Below, piece by piece: positions 23,954 to 61,964 of a DNA stretch of 64,000 nucleotides. Location: positions 930,001-994,000 of the forward strand of contig NC_009523.1 of the NCBI RefSeq assembly GCF_000016665.1, read 5' to 3'. How positions within the stretch are numbered: the stretch's first letter is position 1; every line of letters begins with the position of its first letter. This stretch comes from Roseiflexus sp. RS-1 (GTDB lineage Bacteria; Chloroflexota; Chloroflexia; Chloroflexales; Roseiflexaceae). The notes beneath the pieces are model-generated. The model saw only the letters and a list, made by a program, of their open reading frames with translations. It made no database searches and was not told the origin of the DNA. The translations under genes were made by a program, and so were the position numbers.

Positions 23954-26900
23954 TTATCCCTGTCCTGGTATCCAGCTGTATTCGCGCATTGCATCGCGGA
24001 AGCGACCCTGACGCGAGTAGGCATCGCCAAGGGTGCGATGGAGTTTGCGTAGCAGGCTGATGTCGCTGGTCTCCGCGATCATGTCGCTGAGATCATCGAC
24101 AATTTCATCAAGGAGCGCATTCTGCTTGATGAGGCTGCGGTAGTGCTGCATGGCAAGTTCCACCATACCCACCTGCCCGCCGACCCGTGCGATTGAGAGG
24201 CGAAGAATATGATTGCCCGGATCGCTATCCAGCATGCGCACATACTCTTGCAGTTCCGGGAAGGCGCTCAGGTCTTTTGGAGCGGCAGGCGGCGGCGATG
24301 GCGGCGATGTGGCAGCAGCGATCGGCGCTGCCTTTGCTGGAGGCGGCTGTTTTTCGGCGCCCGTCGGCGGCACAACCGATGCAGGCGCTTCTTTGCGTTC
24401 CTGCGCAGGCGGTTGTGGTGGAACAGTCGCTTCTGGCTGAGCAACTGGTTCGAGATCGATCAATGAGAAGGCCTCTACTTCGCTCGTCGCAGAAGGTGGT
24501 GGTGCAACATCGGACGTTGCAGCAGATCTGGTCGTCTGAGTCACCTCAGCGCCCGACGATTCCGGTTCTTCCGGCGAGAGCGACGGCCCTTCCACAGGCG
24601 ATGTTTCGACAGTACTGCCTGCAGCGCTGATCATAGCGATCTCGTCGTCCGATAATCCCAGCTCCTCCAGCGAGAAGGGAGTGAGCGACGGTTCCTCCGC
24701 AGGCGGTGGAACGTTCTCCTGCTGCCCTGCGGCTGCGGCGGCCAGCAGTGCAATCTCGTCGTCTGATAATCCAAGTTCCTCCAGTGAGAAGGGCCGCATC
24801 AGGTCTTCTTCTGATGGCATATCGTTGAGTGCGGGCTGCAGAGCGCTTTCCACCGGCAATGGCGTCTCTTCCTCCGCATATTCGGCATCAAGGTCGATGA
24901 TCTCATCGCCGTCGCGGATCTGGATTCGTGCAGCATGCAGTTTGCGCCCGATTTCATCGATCCGGTCGGCTTCCGCTTCGGGATCCCTTACCGTGGCTAT
25001 GATGTCGGCAAGATCGACATACCCGCGCTCGTGACCAAGCCGGATCAAACGATCCACCGTTTCATCAACGCTCTCAAAGCCAGGGAATGTCTCAGCCAGC
25101 TCGAATGATTCGACTGGCGGCTCGTGGACAGACGCGGGTTCCGGCAGCCATTCGAGATCGCCGCCCGTTCCCAATGCAGACAGTTCTTCCTCGGTGATGC
25201 CCAGGCGTCCTTCTTCGTACTCCAGACCGCCCTCTGCCAGATCTGAGAGATCGAACTCCCCCAGTTCGTCCTCCGAAAGCCCAAGATCGGCAAGTGAGAA
25301 CGGTTGGAGATCCTCGATGCCAGTTTCTTCTTCCACCAATTCAGGCGCTGCTGAAGCGGGAGATTTGGCTGGCGCCGCAGGCTGGACTATCTCGAACTCA
25401 TCTGTCTCAGTCGTTGGCTGAACCGGCGCTACTGGTTCGGCAGGCGGCGTCGACGCTTTCGGCTCACCAAGACCGAGCGCGGCGATCTCCTCCTCGCTCA
25501 ACCCCAGGTCGGCGAACGAGAACGGTTGCACTTCTCCACTGGCAAGCGCCTCTTCCAGCGTTTCCGCCTCATACGCCGGTTGCGCGGGTGTGACCGGTTC
25601 GGCGGGTGCGGCAGGCGGCGCCGATGCTTCCGGCGTGCCGAGACCAGGCGCAGCGATCTCCTCCTCGCTCAACCCCAGATCGGCGAACGAGAACGGTTGC
25701 ACCTCCCCACGGGCAAGCGCCTCCTCCAGCGTTTCCGCCTCACGCGCCGGTTGCGCGGGTGTACCCGGTTCGGCAGGCGGCGCCGATGCTTCCGGCGTAC
25801 TGAGACCAAGGGCGGCGATTTCTTCCTCGCTCAACCCCAGGTCAGCGAACGAGAACGGTTGCACCTCCCCGCGGGCAAGCGCTTCTTCCAGCGTTTCCGC
25901 TTCGATGTCCGTGCGCTTCGACTCGTGGGTTGCGACTGGCTCTTCGATATGCGGCGGAGCGACTACAGGTTCTTCCTCAGCGACCCGCGACGTCAACCCG
26001 GCAGGCGCTTCAGCAGGGGACTCCGGCGCCTGCGTTACCGGTTGTTCAGGTGCAACGTTCAACCCCAACGCGGCGATCTCCTCTTCGGTCAGCCCAAGGT
26101 CGGCAAACGAGAATGGTTGAATGACCCCGCTGGCAAGACCCGCTTCGATATCCTCGACGTCTTCGATATGCGCCGCGTGAGGCTTCGCGGCATCACCGGC
26201 GCTGACCGGCTCCTCCTGCTGCGGAGGTTCAGGCGCACCCACAGCAGGCAGCTGCTGCTCTGCCCCGACGGATAAGAGTCTTCGTTCCTCAAACTGATCG
26301 TCATCGCGAAGCGATATATCGTCCAGCGAGAACAAACCCAGATGTTCATCCGGTGCAATTGGAGGGGTAGGCGGCTCTTCTGCACCCGGCAGACGCACAC
26401 TTTCGCGTTGCTTTTGCAACTTCTCGAAAATGGTGCCTGTTTCCGCAGGCGCTGTTGAAGATGCCGTGTGCAGGAATGTCGGCTCAGTGCGTTGCGCCGG
26501 TTGTTGCCAGCTAAACCCGCGTGGAATGAACGGCTCTTCCTCTTCGATCGGGCTTTCGGACGCCTCTTCCGGCGTCAACCCCGCCATTCGCGGACGTTGC
26601 GGCGCCGGAGGTTCGTCGAGCGAGAATGGTTGCAGTGATGGCGGCAACTCGCCTATATCCGTCTGCCCGCTCAGCCCTCCGGTTTCCAATTCTTCCATCG
26701 AGAATGGTTGCAGGTCTGGCGGAACATCTCCGATATCGAACCCGATGCCTGGCTTCACTGCTGGTTGATACCCCCCCCCCTCAATATCGATATCGTCGAG
26801 CGAGAAGGGCTGCATATCGATCTCAACATCATCGGGTTGCGATGTTTCTGCCTGAGGAAGGATTGGTTCGCCGCTCAGACTCGCGATCTCCTCCGGCGAA

Positions 26901-28558
26901 AGCCCCAGTTCCTCGAGCGAGAACGGTTGCAGCGCCCCGATCTCGGTCGGCGCCTCTTCGGCAGGCGGCGTGGCAGCACTGTCGAGACTGGCGATCTCAT
27001 CAGGTGAGAGCCCCAGTTCCTCGAGCGAGAACGGTTGCAGCGCCCCGATCTCGGACGGCGCTTCTTCGGCAGGCGGCGTGGCAGCACTGTCGAGACTGGC
27101 GATCTCCTCCGGCGAAAGCCCCAGTTCTTCCAGTGAGAACGGTTGCATCGCGCCGATGTCGGATGGCGCTTCTTCAGCGGGTGCGGTTTCGGCAGGCGGT
27201 GTGGTCACGCTGTCGAGCGCGGCGATCTCATCGGGCGAAAGTCCCAGTTCTTCCAGCGAGAACGGTTGCATCGCGCCGATGTCGGATGGCGCTTCTTCGG
27301 CGGGTGCGGTTTCGGCAGGCGGCGTGGCAACGCTGTCGAGCGCGGCGATCTCCTCCGGCGAAAGCCCCAGTTCCTCGAGCGAGAACGGTTGCAGCGCGCC
27401 AATCTCGGACGGCGCTTCTTCGGCGGGCGCGGTTTCGGCAGGCGGCGACGCTTCCTGTAAGGAAGGCGTTTCCGTCTCCTGCTCACGCGCTTCATCCCAG
27501 GCGCCGAGACGCTCAAGTTCTGCTTCGCTCAACCCCAACTCTTCGAGCGTGAACGGGCGTGTATCCGCATCGATCTCAACTGCGGCTTCCTCGACGGGAG
27601 ACGACGTCACGGGCGGCGCCGTGTCGATTGCCAGCAGCGCGGCAAGAAAATCATCGCTATCATCGTAAACGGATGGCGACGCCTGCGGAGGTGGCGGCGG
27701 CGCCGCCACAGCGGTCGGCGTGGTCGCCTCCATTGATCGTGTGGCAGTGAGTTGTTCGACGGGAGCAGTAACACGCCGGTTGATCCATGCCGCTTCGTCC
27801 CACTCCGGGATCACCGGCTCTGGCACATCAACAGGCGGGAGTGACTCGAACAGCATCCGCGCCATCGACTGGTACGGGTCGATGGTGAGAGTTTTCCTCC
27901 AGTACTGCTCACCGGATGGATTGCCAGAAGCCAGTTCGATGTACCCCAGGATCAGGTTCGCCTTCAACACATCGGGATGGCTGACAAGGATGGCGCGGCA
28001 TACCTCAAGCGCTTCTTCCTCCTGCTCATCACGCCAGAGAGCCTCTGCCAGCGCCACCCGCGCGTCGAGGCGGTCAGGTTGATCCGCCACGACCTGGCGA
28101 AATTCGGAGATCGCCTGCGGTAGCATGTGCCCTTTCGCATACAATCGCGCCAGACCGACACGACTGAGGCGTAGATGTGCATACTCACTGCCCCATGCCT
28201 CGGTATAGAGCCGCAGTAACTGGCTGCGCAACTCTGGCAGGTCAGGCTTGATCTCAAGCGCACGTTCGAAGGCGGCGATCGCGCTGGACAGTTGACCAAG
28301 CCGCTCACTGGTCATGCCAAGCCCAACGAGCGCCGGGATATGCTCCGGGTCGAAACTCAGAACCTTCTCGAACTCGATACGCGCCTCTTCGTACTGGCGG
28401 TTGGACAGAAACGCTTCCCCAAGCATCTGATGGGCTTCCAGACACTTCGGGTACGTCTCAAGGATGTGCTGCACCATCCCGATCGCGCGATCAAGATCGT
28501 CGGATTCGAGCCATTGCCGGGTCTGGTCGAAAGCCGCCTGCAGGCTCACATGTCCCAT
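23954..28558 (-). CDS. 1534-residue TPR protein with repeated PFSLEELGL-type motifs
   Basis: The N-terminal ~240 residues are TPR repeats (AIGMVQHILETYPKCLEAHQ…, EARIEFEKVLSFDPEHIPAL…). A very long acidic Pro/Ala/Glu-rich region follows (about 260-1420), then a C-terminal TPR-like segment of ~110 residues. The middle region holds about 17 copies of a motif close to QPFSLEELGLSPEEIAALD. The first seven or so are of the LEELGLS type. Some are shortened to QPFSLDD- or PFSMEE-type forms, and four are of the FADLGLSEEEI type. The spacers look disordered, so the motifs are likely short binding helices for a repeated partner. There is no signal peptide or membrane helix. AGGAGG precedes the ATG. The downstream roadblock gene suggests a link to GTPase or polarity regulation, which is inference. 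Confidence 0.85.
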   Translation of the reverse strand: MGHVSLQAAFDQTRQWLESDDLDRAIGMVQHILETYPKCLEAHQMLGEAFLSNRQYEEARIEFEKVLSFDPEHIPALVGLGMTSERLGQLSSAIAAFERALEIKPDLPELRSQLLRLYTEAWGSEYAHLRLSRVGLARLYAKGHMLPQAISEFRQVVADQPDRLDARVALAEALWRDEQEEEALEVCRAILVSHPDVLKANLILGYIELASGNPSGEQYWRKTLTIDPYQSMARMLFESLPPVDVPEPVIPEWDEAAWINRRVTAPVEQLTATRSMEATTPTAVAAPPPPPQASPSVYDDSDDFLAALLAIDTAPPVTSSPVEEAAVEIDADTRPFTLEELGLSEAELERLGAWDEAREQETETPSLQEASPPAETAPAEEAPSEIGALQPFSLEELGLSPEEIAALDSVATPPAETAPAEEAPSDIGAMQPFSLEELGLSPDEIAALDSVTTPPAETAPAEEAPSDIGAMQPFSLEELGLSPEEIASLDSAATPPAEEAPSEIGALQPFSLEELGLSPDEIASLDSAATPPAEEAPTEIGALQPFSLEELGLSPEEIASLSGEPILPQAETSQPDDVEIDMQPFSLDDIDIEGGGYQPAVKPGIGFDIGDVPPDLQPFSMEELETGGLSGQTDIGELPPSLQPFSLDEPPAPQRPRMAGLTPEEASESPIEEEEPFIPRGFSWQQPAQRTEPTFLHTASSTAPAETGTIFEKLQKQRESVRLPGAEEPPTPPIAPDEHLGLFSLDDISLRDDDQFEERRLLSVGAEQQLPAVGAPEPPQQEEPVSAGDAAKPHAAHIEDVEDIEAGLASGVIQPFSFADLGLTEEEIAALGLNVAPEQPVTQAPESPAEAPAGLTSRVAEEEPVVAPPHIEEPVATHESKRTDIEAETLEEALARGEVQPFSFADLGLSEEEIAALGLSTPEASAPPAEPGTPAQPAREAETLEEALARGEVQPFSFADLGLSEEEIAAPGLGTPEASAPPAAPAEPVTPAQPAYEAETLEEALASGEVQPFSFADLGLSEEEIAALGLGEPKASTPPAEPVAPVQPTTETDEFEIVQPAAPAKSPASAAPELVEEETGIEDLQPFSLADLGLSEDELGEFDLSDLAEGGLEYEEGRLGITEEELSALGTGGDLEWLPEPASVHEPPVESFELAETFPGFESVDETVDRLIRLGHERGYVDLADIIATVRDPEAEADRIDEIGRKLHAARIQIRDGDEIIDLDAEYAEEETPLPVESALQPALNDMPSEEDLMRPFSLEELGLSDDEIALLAAAAAGQQENVPPPAEEPSLTPFSLEELGLSDDEIAMISAAGSTVETSPVEGPSLSPEEPESSGAEVTQTTRSAATSDVAPPPSATSEVEAFSLIDLEPVAQPEATVPPQPPAQERKEAPASVVPPTGAEKQPPPAKAAPIAAATSPPSPPPAAPKDLSAFPELQEYVRMLDSDPGNHILRLSIARVGGQVGMVELAMQHYRSLIKQNALLDEIVDDLSDMIAETSDISLLRKLHRTLGDAYSRQGRFRDAMREYSWIPGQG

Positions 28559-30745: not shown

Positions 30746-30938
30746 GAACGTCGCCTTTGAGATTTGTATCAATAGTCGTGTGCATAGTATGCACTCACAA
30801 GTACATTATAGCGGCAGCACGATATGCACCACGATAAGGGAATGATTACAAACAGATGAGTCTCCTGCAAAAAGCTCATCTCACAAGTTCATCTCACAAC
30901 AGAGGCGCAGAGAATGAATGGAAGACTCTGCGCTCTAG

Positions 30939-30944
30939 TATAAT
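30939..30944 (+). promoter_or_regulatory. -10 box at IS110 left end (half of a junction promoter)
   Basis: TATAAT lies 4 bp inside the left end. The matching TTGACA (32065-32070) lies 13 bp inside the right end and overlaps the transposase stop codon. If the ends are joined with one CT, the spacing is 13+2+2 = 17 bp, an ideal sigma-70-type promoter. In the integrated element the two halves are more than 1.1 kb apart. Confidence 0.85.
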
Positions 30945-30950
30945 CTAACG

Positions 30951-31090
30951 GGACACGGTATACCGTTCTGCGCCAGGTTCACGAGATCGCCGCGGAGTGT
31001 TGGGTAGCCGTGTCCTTCAACGCGACCAAGCCGAACAGTTATCTGGGCCCTCAAACCCGCATATGCTAGCAAGGCTGGCGCCGTTTTCCT
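30951..31090 (+). ncRNA. Predicted IS110 bridge RNA, copy 1
   Basis: The start is the first base 7 nt after TATAAT. GGACACGG (30951-30958) pairs perfectly with CCGTGTCC (31008-31015) and encloses a target-binding loop. In it TCTGCGCC (30967-30974) resembles the left target, and CGCGGAG (30991-30997) is complementary to CTCCGCG, the core plus right target of copy 2 (one mismatch to copy 1's target). A second stem-loop (about 31026-31078) is the donor loop. ACAGTTA (31035-31041) equals the element's right end, and TATGCTAG (31062-31069) can pair with the left end CTAGTATA (one G-U). The layout matches the bridge RNA described for IS621. The 3' end is estimated. The left-guide alignment to copy 1's own target is offset by one base from the core, so that guide is the least certain. 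Confidence 0.8.
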
Positions 31091-31105
31091 CAGGAGGTTC
31101 TGTGG

Positions 31106-32068
31106 ATGGCTTCCCGTGAGTCGCTCTTTATCGGCATTGATGTCTCCAAACAGACGCTGGATGTGGCGTTTGGCGCCGACCCGCACGCGCCACGCGAGAC
31201 GATACCGTCTACCGACGAAGGTGTCCAGCTCCTGGTCACGCGACTCCAGCGCCTGCAGCCGACCCTGATTGTGCTGGAGGCGACCGGCGGGCTGGAGCGC
31301 ATGGTGTTCGCCCAACTGCTCCAGGCTGGCTTGCCGACGGCGCGGGTGCAGCCACGCCGCGTGCGCGCCCTGGCGCACGCGGAAGGACGCCAGGCGAAGA
31401 CCGACCGCCTGGATGCCCGGTTGCTCGCCCGCTTTGCCGAACGGGTGCGCCCGCCGCACCACCAGGCGACGGACGAGCAGCGCGCATCCTTGCGCGACCT
31501 GCTGGTCCGGCGGGAGCAGGTGATTCAGATGCGGACGGCTGAGATCAATCGGTTGACGGCTGCCGCGCCGAACCTCCGCCCGGGCATCCAGCAGCATATT
31601 GATTGGCTGGATCAGGAGATCCGTGCGCTTGAGCAGGAACGCGACAACGAGGCGGAGCGCACCGACGAGGTGCGCCGGAAACGGGAGCTGCGCGAAAGCG
31701 TGCCCGGCATCGGCGCGATCACCGCACTGAACCTGCTGCTCCGCCTGCCCGAACTGGGGACCATCAATCGCAAGGAAGCGGCGGCCGTTGTGGGCGTTGC
31801 GCCGTATGCCAATCAGAGCGGCGCACAGCACAAACCCCGGCATATCTCCGGCGGCAGGAGGGATGGGCGCAGCGTGTTGTACATGGCGACCCTGGCGGCC
31901 ACGCGGCGCCGTCTGGTCAGGCGCGCCTTCGATCAGCGCCTGTGTCAAGCTGGCAAGCCGCGCAAGGTCGCCATCGTCGCTGCGATGCGCAAGCTGCTGA
32001 CTATTCTCGGCGCAATATTGCGTCAGCAAAAGCCCTGGGATCCGGCTGTGCATACGAGCGCCCCTTGA
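31106..32068 (+). CDS. IS110-family transposase (bridge-RNA-guided recombinase), copy 1
   Basis: A 320-residue protein with an N-terminal RuvC-like DEDD domain: D12 (IGIDVSKQ), E58 (VLEATGG), D100 and D103 (KTDRLDARLLA). A central coiled coil follows (about 145-180), then a C-terminal Transposase_20 domain (SVPGIGAITALNLL, then ANQSGAQHKPRHISGGRR containing the candidate catalytic Ser). AGGAGG lies 8 bp before the ATG. It differs from copy 2 at five residues (for example L75 versus V). It should catalyse seamless excision to a circle and integration at sites chosen by the RNA encoded just upstream. The large opposite-strand frame is a shadow. Confidence 0.95.
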   Translation: MASRESLFIGIDVSKQTLDVAFGADPHAPRETIPSTDEGVQLLVTRLQRLQPTLIVLEATGGLERMVFAQLLQAGLPTARVQPRRVRALAHAEGRQAKTDRLDARLLARFAERVRPPHHQATDEQRASLRDLLVRREQVIQMRTAEINRLTAAAPNLRPGIQQHIDWLDQEIRALEQERDNEAERTDEVRRKRELRESVPGIGAITALNLLLRLPELGTINRKEAAAVVGVAPYANQSGAQHKPRHISGGRRDGRSVLYMATLAATRRRLVRRAFDQRLCQAGKPRKVAIVAAMRKLLTILGAILRQQKPWDPAVHTSAP

Positions 32069-32130
32069 CAAGCAACACAGTTACTCGGCGTCTCGGCGGT
32101 GCGTTTTTGTAGCGAAGTCAAACAGATCTG

Positions 32131-45167: not shown

Positions 45168-45389
45168 TATAGCAGTTCTCACAAAGACTGGTCTTGTCGG
45201 GCAGGGTTGTCCCCGCCATCGAAAGCAGACGCCGTGTGCGCCATCCCTCCGCGTGCTCCGCGCCTCTGTGTGCATCAGACCGGCTCACGCGGAGGCGCGG
45301 AGGCGCGGAGATGGGGAGCAAGCGGAGGCGGGCGTCTCGCGCGACACGGCAGACCCGACCGGGGGTCAATGTATCTGAGAACTACTATA
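45168..45389 (+). repeat. MITE-like element 1 (222 bp)
   Basis: It is bounded by TATAGCAGTTCTCA and TGAGAACTACTATA, a 14-bp terminal inverted repeat with one mismatch. Inside it has Cys/Gly-free noncoding GC-rich sequence, including an unoccupied IS110 target (45281-45319). The 3' third is nearly identical to 58406-58464 (GGCGTCTCGCGCGACACGGC). Confidence 0.75.
45281..45319. other. Empty target site matching the flanks of IS110 copy 2
   Basis: CGGCTCACGCGGAGGCGCGGAG (45281-45302, shown over its key part) followed by GCGCGGAGATGGGGAGC matches the two flanks of IS110 copy 2 (47163-47184 and 48334-48350). There is one mismatch on each side and no inserted or lost base at the junction. Confidence 0.85.
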
Positions 45390-45420
45390 ATCCGGTATGC
45401 ACCTCTTGCTGTCGGGCTTA

Positions 45421-45586
45421 TAGAGATTGAGCATTAAGTCCGCTCTACCGCGCTAGCCGTCGGGCTAATGGAGATTGAGCATTAAATCCGCTCTACCGCG
45501 CTAGCCGTGGGGCTGAAGCCCTCGGTTATGGAATGCAAAGCCCGCCTGCGCGGGCTATATCGAATTATTCATTCAAAGACCATTAC
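45421..45586 (+). repeat. Composite REP-like locus A
   Basis: Two 48-bp units (GAGATTGAGCATTA at 45423 and 45471) are followed by one hairpin module with AGCCCGCCTGCGCGGGCT at 45539-45556 and a TCAAAGACCATTA tail. Same orientation and order as locus B. Confidence 0.85.
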
Positions 45587-46768: not shown

Positions 46769-47184
46769 GGATCGCTATCTCCTGTATCAGTGGCAACAAT
46801 GATGATAGTAACGTACCCATGGGCATGGTACTGGAGTATCGGAGACCAATGATTGCAGAACAGGTGCGAATTCATTGCGGCCACGCTTATGATCTGCCGT
46901 TTCCGATGGACATGATCCAGCCCCACATCCCTGGGCTTCCACCAGCACGTACCAGAACGCAGGAGCAGGCGTGTCGCGTGGCGACCGGCGAATCGCACAT
47001 TCCATTGCACATTCATGACTCTCCTGAACTCACCGCTGAGACGCCGGGCGTGTAGCGGACGCCTCGCGCGACACGGGGGACACGAACGACGGTCGACGCA
47101 TCCGAGAAAGACTGGAATGATCCGTATCCCTCCGCGTACTCCGCATCTCCGCTGCATCGGGCCGGCTCACGCGGAGACGCGGAG
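46769..47184. other. Intergenic region up to IS110 copy 2
   Basis: A 416-bp stretch with no supported gene. Positions 47031-47125 contain decayed repeat ends: CTCACCGCTGAGACGCCGGG from family G and CTCGCGCGACACGG…GGTCGACGCATCCGAGA from the MITE-like family. Positions 47163-47184 are the left flank of the insertion. Confidence 0.6.
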
Positions 47185-47199
47185 TAACTGTGTTGCTTG

Positions 47200-48162
47200 T
47201 CAAGGGGCGCTCGTATGCACAGCCGGATCCCAGGGCTTTTGCTGACGCAATATTGCGCCGAGAATAGTCAGCAGCTTGCGCATCGCAGCGACGATGGCGA
47301 CCTTGCGCGGCTTGCCAGCTTGACACAGGCGCTGATCGAAGGCGCGCCTGACCAGACGGCGCCGCGTGGCCGCCAGGGTCGCCATGTACAACACGCTGCG
47401 CACATCCCTCCTGCCGCCGGAGATATGCCGGGGTTTGTGCTGTGCGCCGCTCTGATTGGCATACGGCGCAACGCCCACAAAGGCCGCCGCTTCCTTGCGA
47501 TTGATGGTCCCCAGTTCGGGCAGGCGGAGCAGCAGGTTCAGTGCGGTGATCGCGCCGATGCCGGGCACGCTTTCGCGCAGCTCCCGTTTCCGGCGCACCT
47601 CGTCGGTGCGCTCCGCCTCGTTGTCGCGTTCCTGCTCAAGCGCACGGATCTCCTGATCCAGCCAATCAATATGCTTCTGGATGCCCGGGCGGAGGTTCGG
47701 CGCGGCAGCCGTCAACCGATTGATCTCAGCCGTCCGCATCTGAATCAACTGCTCCCGCCGGACCAGCAGGTCGCGCAAGGATGCGCGCTGCTCGTCCGTC
47801 GCTTGGTGGTGCGGCGGGCGCACCCGTTCGGCAAAGCGGGCGAGCAACCGGGCATCCAGGCGGTCGGTCTTCGCCTGGCGTCCTTCCGCGTGCGCCAGGG
47901 CGCGCACGCGGCGTGGCTGCACCCGCGCCGTCGGCACGCCAGCCTGGAGCAGTTGGGCGAACACCATGCGCTCCAGCCCGCCGGTCGCCTCCAGCACAAT
48001 CAGGGTCGGCTGCAGGCGCTGGAGTCGCGTGACCAGGAGCTGGACACCTTCGTCGGTAGACGGTATCGTCTCGCGTGGCGCGTGCGGGTCGGCGCCAAAC
48101 GCCACATCCAGCGTCTGTTTGGAGACATCAATGCCGATAAAGAGCGACTCACGGGAAGCCAT
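47200..48162 (-). CDS. IS110-family transposase, copy 2
   Basis: A 320-residue protein, 315 positions identical to copy 1. The differences are L/V, V/L, Q/K, V/F and G/V, none in the DEDD residues (D12, E58, D100, D103). The gene is intact, with AGGAGG before the ATG. The five replacements are scattered, and the paired noncoding regions are essentially identical, so both copies should share one targeting specificity. A 378-codon frame on the opposite strand is a shadow. Confidence 0.95.
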   Translation of the reverse strand: MASRESLFIGIDVSKQTLDVAFGADPHAPRETIPSTDEGVQLLVTRLQRLQPTLIVLEATGGLERMVFAQLLQAGVPTARVQPRRVRALAHAEGRQAKTDRLDARLLARFAERVRPPHHQATDEQRASLRDLLVRREQLIQMRTAEINRLTAAAPNLRPGIQKHIDWLDQEIRALEQERDNEAERTDEVRRKRELRESVPGIGAITALNLLLRLPELGTINRKEAAAFVGVAPYANQSGAQHKPRHISGGRRDVRSVLYMATLAATRRRLVRRAFDQRLCQAGKPRKVAIVAAMRKLLTILGAILRQQKPWDPAVHTSAP

Positions 48163-48189
48163 ACACAGAACCTCCTGAGGAAAACGGCG

Positions 48190-48317
48190 CCAGCCTTGCT
48201 AGCATATGCGGGTTTGAGGGCCCAGATAACTGTTCGGCTTGGTCGCGTTGAAGGACACGGCTACCCAACACTCCGCGGCGATCTCGTGAACCTGGCGCAG
48301 AACGGTATACCGTGTCC
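48190..48317 (-). ncRNA. Predicted IS110 bridge RNA, copy 2
   Basis: Same sequence and fold as copy 1. The GGACACGG/CCGTGTCC stem encloses the target loop, and the donor loop has ACAGTTA and TATGCTAG. Here CGCGGAG pairs without mismatch with the core and right target CTCCGCG of this insertion site. TCTGCGCC matches the left target TCCGCGCC at 7 of 8 positions; the one difference would be a G-U pair. Confidence 0.8.
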
Positions 48318-48348
48318 CGTTAGATTATACTAGGCGCGGAGATATGGA

Positions 48349-48465
48349 GCGCAGTTCTCACGAAGATCGGTCCTGCTGGACAGGATTGAACGCTCCGCCG
48401 GAAGCGGGCGCCTTGTGCGACGTCGCAGACAGGAACAATGGTCAATATATCTGAGAACTGCTGTA
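48349..48465 (+). repeat. MITE-like element 2 (about 117 bp)
   Basis: It begins GCAGTTCTCA and ends TGAGAACTGCTGTA, matching the termini of elements 1 and 3, with internal deletion relative to element 1. It lies immediately outside the left end of IS110 copy 2 and just before the CrtI-like gene. Confidence 0.65.
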
Positions 48466-52749: not shown

Positions 52750-53224
52750 GAACCACCTCGTTGCAACCGTTTCCAGGAATGATGACCAGACCGCCGGCGC
52801 CTCTGGTCTGTCAGCATGGCTGGAACGGAATGCGATCCGTCCCAACCATGCGTGTATGTTCACCCGCTAAGATACACGTCCTGAGCCAGTTTGAGATGAT
52901 GCCTGAAGCACGCTGATGGCGATTGAGCATTTAATCCGCTATGCGCTTTGTGCCGTCGGGCTCATGGAGATTGAGCATTTAATCCGCTATACCACGCTAG
53001 CCGTGGGGCTGAAGCCCTCGGCTAGCCAGGGCGAAGCCCGCCTGCGCGGGCTGTAGCGGATTATTTACTCAAAGACCATAAGCCCTCGGCTATGCGAGGC
53101 GAAGCCCGCCTGCGCGGGCTAGAGCGGATTATTTCTTCAAAGACCATTAGCAAGCGAGTCGTCTTCTACTTTCGAAGATTGCTCCGATGCTCCTGGCGTC
53201 TCGCACACTCCTCTGTTCCGCACG
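52750..53224. other. Long intercistronic gap in the ABC operon
   Basis: Between the binding-protein stop codon and the first permease start on the minus strand. It contains REP locus B (52917-53155). I see no gene and no clear new promoter, although one could be hidden between 52750 and 52900. Confidence 0.6.
52917..53155 (+). repeat. Composite REP-like locus B
   Basis: Two 48-bp units (GATTGAGCAT at 52921 and 52969) are followed by two 68-bp modules with hairpins AGCCCGCCTGCGCGGGCT at 53035-53052 and 53103-53120 and TCAAAGACCAT tails. It lies within an operon, between the binding-protein and permease genes. Confidence 0.9.
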
Positions 53225-57899: not shown

Positions 57900-58300
57900 T
57901 TCTCGCCCGCGCAGGCGGGCTTTGCCCTGGAGAGCCGGGGGCTTATCGTAGCTGATAGCCGATAGTCGATAGAGTCACCGTTAGAGTTCGCGTTCCGCGC
58001 AGGCGGGCTTTGCCCTGGAGAGCCAGGGGCTTATGGTCTTTGAGTAATTATTCTGCCATAGCCCGCGCAGGCGGGCTTTGCCGCGCATAGCCGAGGGCTT
58101 ATGGTCTTTGAGTAAATAATCCGCTACAGCCCGCGCAGGCGGGCTTCGCCTTGGCTAGCCGAGGGCTTCAGCCCCACGGCTAGCGCGGTAGAGCGGAATA
58201 AATTCTCAATCTCCATTAGCCCGACGGCTCGTGCGGTAGAGCGGATTTAATTCTCAATCTCCATTAGCCCCACGGCTCATTCGGTATACCGGATTATAGC
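57900..58300 (-). repeat. Composite REP-like locus C
   Basis: Reverse orientation. Hairpin modules with AGCCCGCGCAGGCGGGCT (or close variants) start at 57904, 57992, 58060 and 58128; the last three have an exact 68-bp period. Two 48-bp units follow (CTCAATCTCC at 58205 and 58253). It lies between two convergent genes. Confidence 0.9.
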
Positions 58301-61590: not shown

Positions 61591-61964
61591 TGCGCGAAAG
61601 CGCTTTAGATTATAGCATTTCTCATAGAGGTTGAACCTCCTCAGCGGGTGCAGGCTCAAGCCCTCCCTGAGCGCATGGAAGCCCCTGCGGGGCTGGCGTT
61701 TCAGCTATCCTTGCCATATGCCGGGAGAAGCGGGGTTGATCCAGCCCGCAGGGCTTGCCCGACCTTAGCCAGGGCTTATGGTCGTTGAAGAAATAATCCG
61801 GTCTAGCCCGCGCAGGCGGGCTTCGCCCTGGATAGCCGAGGGCTTCAGCCCGACGGCTAGCGCGGGATAGCGGATTTATTTCTCAATCTCCATCAGCCCG
61901 ACGGCTAGCGCGGAATAGCGGATTTATTTCTCAATCTTCATCAGCCCGCCGGAGGCTTTTCACC
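61591..61964. other. Repeat-filled intergenic region before the LuxR-type gene
   Basis: A 374-bp gap. It has a MITE-like start at 61613 (TATAGCATTTCTCA), the second copy of the 39-bp repeat (61658-61696) and composite REP locus D. No gene is seen. Confidence 0.7.
61775..61950 (-). repeat. Composite REP-like locus D
   Basis: Reverse orientation. One hairpin module with AGCCCGCGCAGGCGGGCT at 61805-61822 is followed by two 48-bp units (CTCAATCT at 61882 and 61930). It lies upstream of the LuxR-type gene and downstream of the second protease gene. Confidence 0.88.

What the first reader, a model, noticed from the sequence alone, without database searches (positions are those of the whole stretch)
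45281..45319. Unoccupied twin of the insertion site of IS110 copy 2
The 22 bp left of copy 2 (47163-47184) and 17 bp right of it (48334-48350) occur contiguously at 45281-45319, with one mismatch on each side and no gap. This defines the insertion point to the base, gives the element's ends, and shows CT as core with no target duplication beyond it.
Basis: seen in the sequence. Interest (0 to 1): 0.75.

Follow-up and report, generated by a model that had tools for sequence, protein, structure and literature searches.

The report
RNA-guided jumping gene's empty target
The matching sequence is a real empty copy of the landing site of a bacterial jumping gene; all 40 copies examined in this genome have landed in the same kind of doubled GC-rich word, which the element's own guide RNA appears to spell out, so this is a well-documented natural case of a known RNA-guided mechanism.

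Summary
45281-45319 matches the joined flanks of IS110 copy 2 without a gap (36/39 bases; 1 mismatch left, 2 right, not 1+1). It is a paralogous empty target inside a ~222-bp MITE-like dispersed repeat (45168-45389), not the same locus before insertion. Genome-wide, all 40 copies retrieved (1,149 bp, >=99% identical, all ORFs intact) sit at one motif: left half TCYGCGY, core CT, right half CNGYG, i.e. between two units of a CTCYGCG direct repeat, in several repeat families and a few unique loci. Sister genomes carry true orthologous empty sites, gap-free at the predicted base, so the ends and the lack of target duplication are shown independently. One copy inserted at an AT core marks the exchange dinucleotide. 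The 171-nt noncoding region upstream of the transposase gene holds segments matching both target halves and both donor halves, in canonical bridge-RNA order (0 of 20,000 shuffles). This is a new IS110-family member, working like IS621. Two features look unusual: the left half-site lies 0 (25), 1 (14) or 2 (1) nt from the core, with similar occupancy at 0 and 1; and, because the target is a direct repeat, the two target guides are mutually complementary. Both are inferences from sequence.

The parts
45281..45319 (-). the reported unoccupied twin (39 bp of the repeat around the empty insertion point 45302/45303)
45296..45309 (-). empty target TCCGCGC|CT|CCGCG equivalent to the site used by copy 2: left half 45309-45303, core CT 45302-45301, right half 45300-45296
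45288..45301 (-). second empty target 8 bp away in the same array; the unit boundary most often used by other copies in this repeat
45248..45262 (+). empty target in the opposite arm, spacing-1 class (TCCGCGTG|CTCCGCG); copies L004, L018, L061, L064, L069 sit at this place in their repeats
45257..45270 (+). fourth empty target-like site, spacing 0 (TCCGCGC|CTCTGTG)
45168..45389 (+). MITE-like dispersed repeat that holds the twin; terminal inverted repeats TATAGCAGTTCTCA (45168-45181) and TGAGAACTACTATA (45376-45389)
47185..48333 (-). IS110-family element, copy 2 (1,149 bp counted with one CT core)
47200..48162 (-). transposase/recombinase, 320 aa: DEDD_Tnp_IS110 (PF01548) + Transposase_20 (PF02371); similar to ISCro4 (9t56) and IS621 (8wt6)
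48163..48333 (-). 171-nt noncoding left end, predicted to encode the bridge RNA
48295..48302 (-). left target guide UUCUGCGC (nt 32-39 of the left end)
48271..48278 (-). right target guide CCGCGGAG (nt 56-63), pairs CT core + CCGCGG
48227..48233 (-). left donor guide ACAGUUA (nt 101-107), matches the right end of the element
48199..48206 (-). right donor guide UAUGCUAG (nt 128-135), pairs CTAGTATA at the left end
48334..48341 (-). left half-site of copy 2, CTCCGCGC in transposase sense
47177..47184 (-). core CT (47184-47183) and right half-site of copy 2, CTCCGCGT in transposase sense
30935..32083 (+). IS110 copy 1, opposite orientation, 7 differences from copy 2; inserted at CTCTGCGCT|CT|CGGCG (spacing-1 class)

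Best explanation
45281-45319 is an unoccupied target of a bridge-RNA-guided IS110-family element. The element leaves as a circle whose junction is ACAGTTA-CT-AGTATAA. A bridge RNA from its 171-nt left end would hold that donor junction with one loop and the target with the other. The recombinase would exchange strands at a shared CT dinucleotide, inserting the element between two units of a CTCYGCG direct repeat with no base gained or lost. Such doubled units occur in the MITE-like repeat at 45168-45389 and in other dispersed repeats, so the element has spread to 40 or more copies through this repeat network. Shown here: motif, exact ends, no duplication, core position, guide-like segments in order, near-identical intact copies. 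Inferred: circle, RNA expression, pairing and catalysis, from homology to IS621.
For: All 40 copies join at the same base, left end CTAGTATAAT and right end CACAGTTA (L024 lacks the first C). The right half CTCNGYG is kept at 40/40 sites. Left-guide pairing is >=6/8 (spacing 0-2) at 40/40 sites versus 18% of background CT positions; right-guide pairing >=6/8 at 40/40 versus 18%. Orthologous sites in G001-G005 are empty and gap-free at the predicted base for L005, in three of them for L066, and in G001 for L006; the L013 site is also intact at the junction. L024: target core AT (G001 empty site GCGCGATCTCTGG), left junction AT, right junction CT. All four guide-like segments in the order LTG, RTG, LDG, RDG occur in 0 of 20,000 dinucleotide shuffles. 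Protein: PF01548 + PF02371, ISCro4 E 1.6e-45 and IS621 E 1.1e-42. 40/40 ORFs intact, target guides identical in all copies. IS ends also found in G001 at CTTGGCGC|CT and CTCTGCGC|CT sites.
Against: No experiment. Folding energy of the left end is no better than shuffles (z 0.07), and Rfam has no hit to it. No covariation: all copies share the same target guides and the nearest relatives are only about 35% identical. Each guide match alone has a chance of 2-18% in shuffles; only the set is significant. The left guide lacks the U that would pair with the T of the core. Most target sites lie in related repeats and are not independent.
Confidence: 0.9

Rival explanations
1. The transposase or DNA structure (GC-rich inverted repeats) picks the site, and the guide matches in the left end are accidental.
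For: Targets lie mostly in inverted-repeat elements. Single guide matches are not rare in shuffles.
Against: Insertions in unique DNA (L003, L005, L009, L012, L066) still match both half-sites. The ordered set of four matches is absent from 20,000 shuffles. The protein is homologous to IS621, where guidance is proven (PMC11208160, PMC11208158).
Confidence: 0.05
2. Copies spread passively, carried along when the MITE-like repeats multiplied with the IS already inside.
For: Many copies lie inside the same repeat family.
Against: Copies sit at different unit boundaries and in both arms of that repeat, in at least two other repeat families and in unique genes. Orthologous empty sites exist for copies outside the MITE.
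Confidence: 0.03
3. The twin match is a chance similarity of GC-rich simple words and says nothing about insertion.
For: The core of the match is a tandem CGCGGAGG word. The right-hand match is only 17 bp.
Against: 36/39 versus at most 26/39 in shuffles. The left similarity runs about 60 bp. The same kind of join is found at orthologous empty sites.
Confidence: 0.01

Closest known systems
IS621 (IS110 family, E. coli; PMC11208160, PMC11208158)
   Same: DEDD/RuvC-like recombinase with Transposase_20 domain, long left end and short right end, CT core, no target duplication, insertion into dispersed repeats (REP), bridge-RNA guide order LTG-RTG-LDG-RDG, AT core tolerated
   Different: Target is a direct repeat of CTCYGCG. 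The right target guide is long (core + up to 6 bases) and its half-site is the more conserved half. The left half-site is found at 0, 1 or 2 nt from the core. The two target guides are complementary to each other. Protein only distantly similar (E 1.1e-42).
ISCro4 (PDB 9t56)
   Same: Closest solved protein (E 1.6e-45)
   Different: Different host; its target was not examined here
REP-targeting IS110 elements ISPpu9, ISPpu10, ISPa11, ISRm19 (PMC1525189)
   Same: All copies of the IS sit at one point of a dispersed palindromic repeat
   Different: Those counts are 4-7 copies per genome in one REP type; here 40 of 40 copies, in several repeat families sharing the doubled unit

Membership tests
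IS110 family (IS110 subgroup) | DEDD_Tnp_IS110 and Transposase_20 domains | tested here: met
   PF01548 89 bits, PF02371 57.4 bits, both above cut-off
IS110 family (IS110 subgroup) | DEDD acidic residues and catalytic serine of the IS621 type | tested here: met
   GIDVSK, LEATGG, KTDRLDARLLA and NQSGAQ align with the matching ISCro4 blocks; judged by alignment only
IS110 family (IS110 subgroup) | Long left (5') noncoding end, short right end | tested here: met
   171 nt upstream of the gene, 15 nt downstream
IS110 family (IS110 subgroup) | No target duplication beyond a dinucleotide core | tested here: met
   orthologous empty sites, gap-free
IS110 family (IS110 subgroup) | Left end encodes a bridge RNA with target and donor guides | tested here: inconclusive
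   guide-like segments in canonical order, 0/20,000 shuffles; no expression or covariation data, folding not better than shuffles
IS110 family (IS110 subgroup) | Circular double-stranded intermediate | not testable with these tools
   needs PCR across the end-to-end junction or reads
MITE (host repeat of the twin) | Short, non-coding, terminal inverted repeats, many dispersed copies | tested here: met
   about 220 bp in the compact copies, 14-bp inverted ends, 134 exact end copies versus 0 for the control pattern
MITE (host repeat of the twin) | Autonomous partner with the same ends | tested here: inconclusive
   L160: 1.5-kb stretch between the same ends with DDE_Tnp_4/HTH_Tnp_4 frames; frame interrupted, link not proven

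The most novel reading that the evidence does not exclude
This bridge RNA works on a tandem-repeat target with relaxed geometry. The left guide accepts a half-site displaced by one nucleotide (rarely two) from the core about as well as the canonical spacing. Its left and right target guides, complementary to each other because the target is a direct repeat, fold shut in the free RNA and must be opened by the target, acting as a fidelity lock.
Probability: 0.3. Interest if true: 0.55.

Novelty: new member of a known kind. Interest (0 to 1): 0.4.

Why it matters
Forty natural insertions from near-identical copies, together with orthologous empty sites, give an unusually clean natural specificity profile for one bridge RNA. 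They suggest which target positions must pair, which accept wobble, and that the left half-site may shift. That bears on how specific bridge recombinases are as genome-engineering tools. It also shows how an RNA-guided element could multiply by having a guide tuned to a word shared by several dispersed repeat families.

Tried and rejected
Rfam: nothing on the left end; one sub-threshold hit inside the gene, taken as chance. The genome-contig scan for close transposase relatives found only a 26% relative, so guide-target covariation could not be built. The folding z-score was uninformative. Considered and dropped: the twin as an excision scar of the same locus (the repeat itself is absent at both loci in G001). 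Considered and dropped: an 8-bp target duplication; flanking octamers look duplicated, but they are the pre-existing tandem units, as the empty sites show. Searches for papers on IS110 or MITEs in Roseiflexus found none.

Full report
Observation. The 36/39 match is far above shuffled windows (maximum 26/39). Similarity continues about 60 bp to the left and ends after 17 bp on the right.

What the twin is. It lies in a MITE-like repeat of 222 bp (45168-45389) with 14-bp inverted ends TATAGCAGTTCTCA / TGAGAACTACTATA. The end sequence occurs 134 times in the 5.80-Mb chromosome and its reversed control 0 times. Alignment of the dispersed copies gives sharp ends and two inner arms, each carrying tandem CTCCGCG units. 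In the nearest sister genome (G001) both the twin's repeat and the copy-2 repeat are absent from the orthologous places. The twin is therefore a paralogous empty target, not the old allele. It contains four motif-type sites: two spacing-0 sites on the minus strand 8 bp apart, and one spacing-0 and one spacing-1 site on the plus strand.

The element genome-wide. All are 1,149 bp with no internal indel (L024 counted without its first base); 26 columns vary, all 40 ORFs are intact, and the target guides are identical in all. Every copy starts CTAGTATAAT and ends CACAGTTA in transposase sense, except L024, which lacks the first C. Right-hand flanks are CTCNGYG at 40 of 40 sites. Left-hand flanks carry the same unit, TCYGCGY or close. 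One pair of copies lies in tandem, 8 bp apart, filling two neighbouring units. Sites occur in the MITE, in repeats ending CTCTGCGGTGA or CTCGGCGTCTCGGCGGTGCGTTTTT, and in unique DNA such as a SAM-dependent methyltransferase gene (L005) and a NYN-like gene (L066); these two gene names are read by eye from the translations.

Independent proof of the junction. Flanks of ten copies were joined in a script and searched in five sister genomes. For L005 (five genomes), L066 (G001, G004, G005) and L006 (G001) the empty orthologous site aligns without a gap at the junction. L013 in G001 is also intact at the junction; its gaps lie elsewhere. None of these shows a duplication or deletion at the junction. 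In L024 the empty G001 site reads GCGCGATCTCTGG. The occupied left junction reads GCGCG-AT-AGTATA and the right CAGTTA-CT-CTGTGG. A target core AT and a donor core CT explain both, and remove the 1-nt gap that the CT convention leaves. This places the exchange at the dinucleotide, which the twin alone cannot do.

Mechanism. The protein has PF01548 and PF02371 and matches ISCro4 and IS621. IS621 bridge RNA pairs its left guides with bottom strands and its right guides with top strands, the core being included (PMC11208160, PMC11208158). In the 171-nt left end here, UUCUGCGC (nt 32-39) matches the left target, CCGCGGAG (56-63) pairs core plus right target, ACAGUUA (101-107) matches the left donor, and UAUGCUAG (128-135) pairs core plus right donor. 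Each run alone is not rare in shuffles (2-18%), but none of 20,000 shuffles holds all four. Per site, left pairing is at least 6/8 (spacing 0-2) and right pairing at least 6/8 at 40/40 sites, against 18% each of background CT positions. Part of the C/T variation in the targets falls where the guide base can wobble (U in the left guide; G against right positions 4 and 6, where position 6 is C 36, T 4).

Two unusual features, inferred. First, the left half-site is 0 nt from the core at 25 sites, 1 nt at 14 and 2 nt at 1. Most sites fall sharply into one class: 8/8 pairing at one spacing goes with 2-3/8 at the neighbouring one. For strict sites, 12 are filled and 79 empty at spacing 0, 11 filled and 44 empty at spacing 1 (Fisher p 0.35). 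So a one-base shift does not visibly reduce use. Caution: the repeats themselves come with both spacings, the sites are not independent, unique-DNA sites are few and mostly spacing 0, and a few sites (L005 for instance) fit two registers equally. Second, a direct-repeat target makes the two target guides complementary. Folding predicts that they pair (probability 0.6-1.0 at nt 33-38; opening costs about 9.5 kcal/mol in the model). Whether this matters in the cell is unknown.

Known or new. Insertion of IS110 elements at one point of dispersed repeats is known (PMC1525189; IS621 in REP), and bridge-RNA guidance is known. This is a new, well-populated member. The chromosome length (5,801,598 bp) fits, from memory, Roseiflexus sp. 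RS-1; that was not tested.

Noticed in passing
L160 (G000:C1:314700-316600), about 175-1725: A 1.5-kb stretch bracketed by the MITE ends TATAGCAGTTCTCA carries DDE_Tnp_4 and HTH_Tnp_4 frames, interrupted by about eight copies of a 15-bp tandem repeat (GACGGTTCTTCACAC): a possible, perhaps broken, autonomous partner of the MITE.
   Followed up: partly
L027 / L070 (G000:C1:2815353-2817658): Two full IS110 copies head to tail, separated by exactly 8 bp (CTCAGCGT), filling neighbouring units of one array.
   Followed up: yes
L024 (G000:C1:5748462-5749609): Natural insertion at an AT core, with AT kept at the left junction and CT at the right: a natural marker of the exchange point.
   Followed up: yes
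IS copies, left-end nt 105: Three of 40 copies carry T to G inside the left donor guide (ACAGUUA to ACAGGUA); effect on donor pairing unknown.
   Followed up: no
window 45408-45583, 52912-53151, 57995-58276, 61748-61952: Another dispersed repeat family, about 70-240 bp, around AGCCCGCCTGCGCGGGCT, often in tandem and next to the MITE-like repeats.
   Followed up: no
window 25251-27445: Tandem coding-type repeats (units of 108-171 bp, ten copies) of a motif around GAGAACGGTTGCA.
   Followed up: no
G001 contigs C12, C139, C166: Contig ends break about 46-55 bp inside the IS110 element, as expected for a collapsed repeat: the sister genome carries the IS; the flanks of these three ends had no match among the flanks of the G000 copies.
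   Followed up: partly
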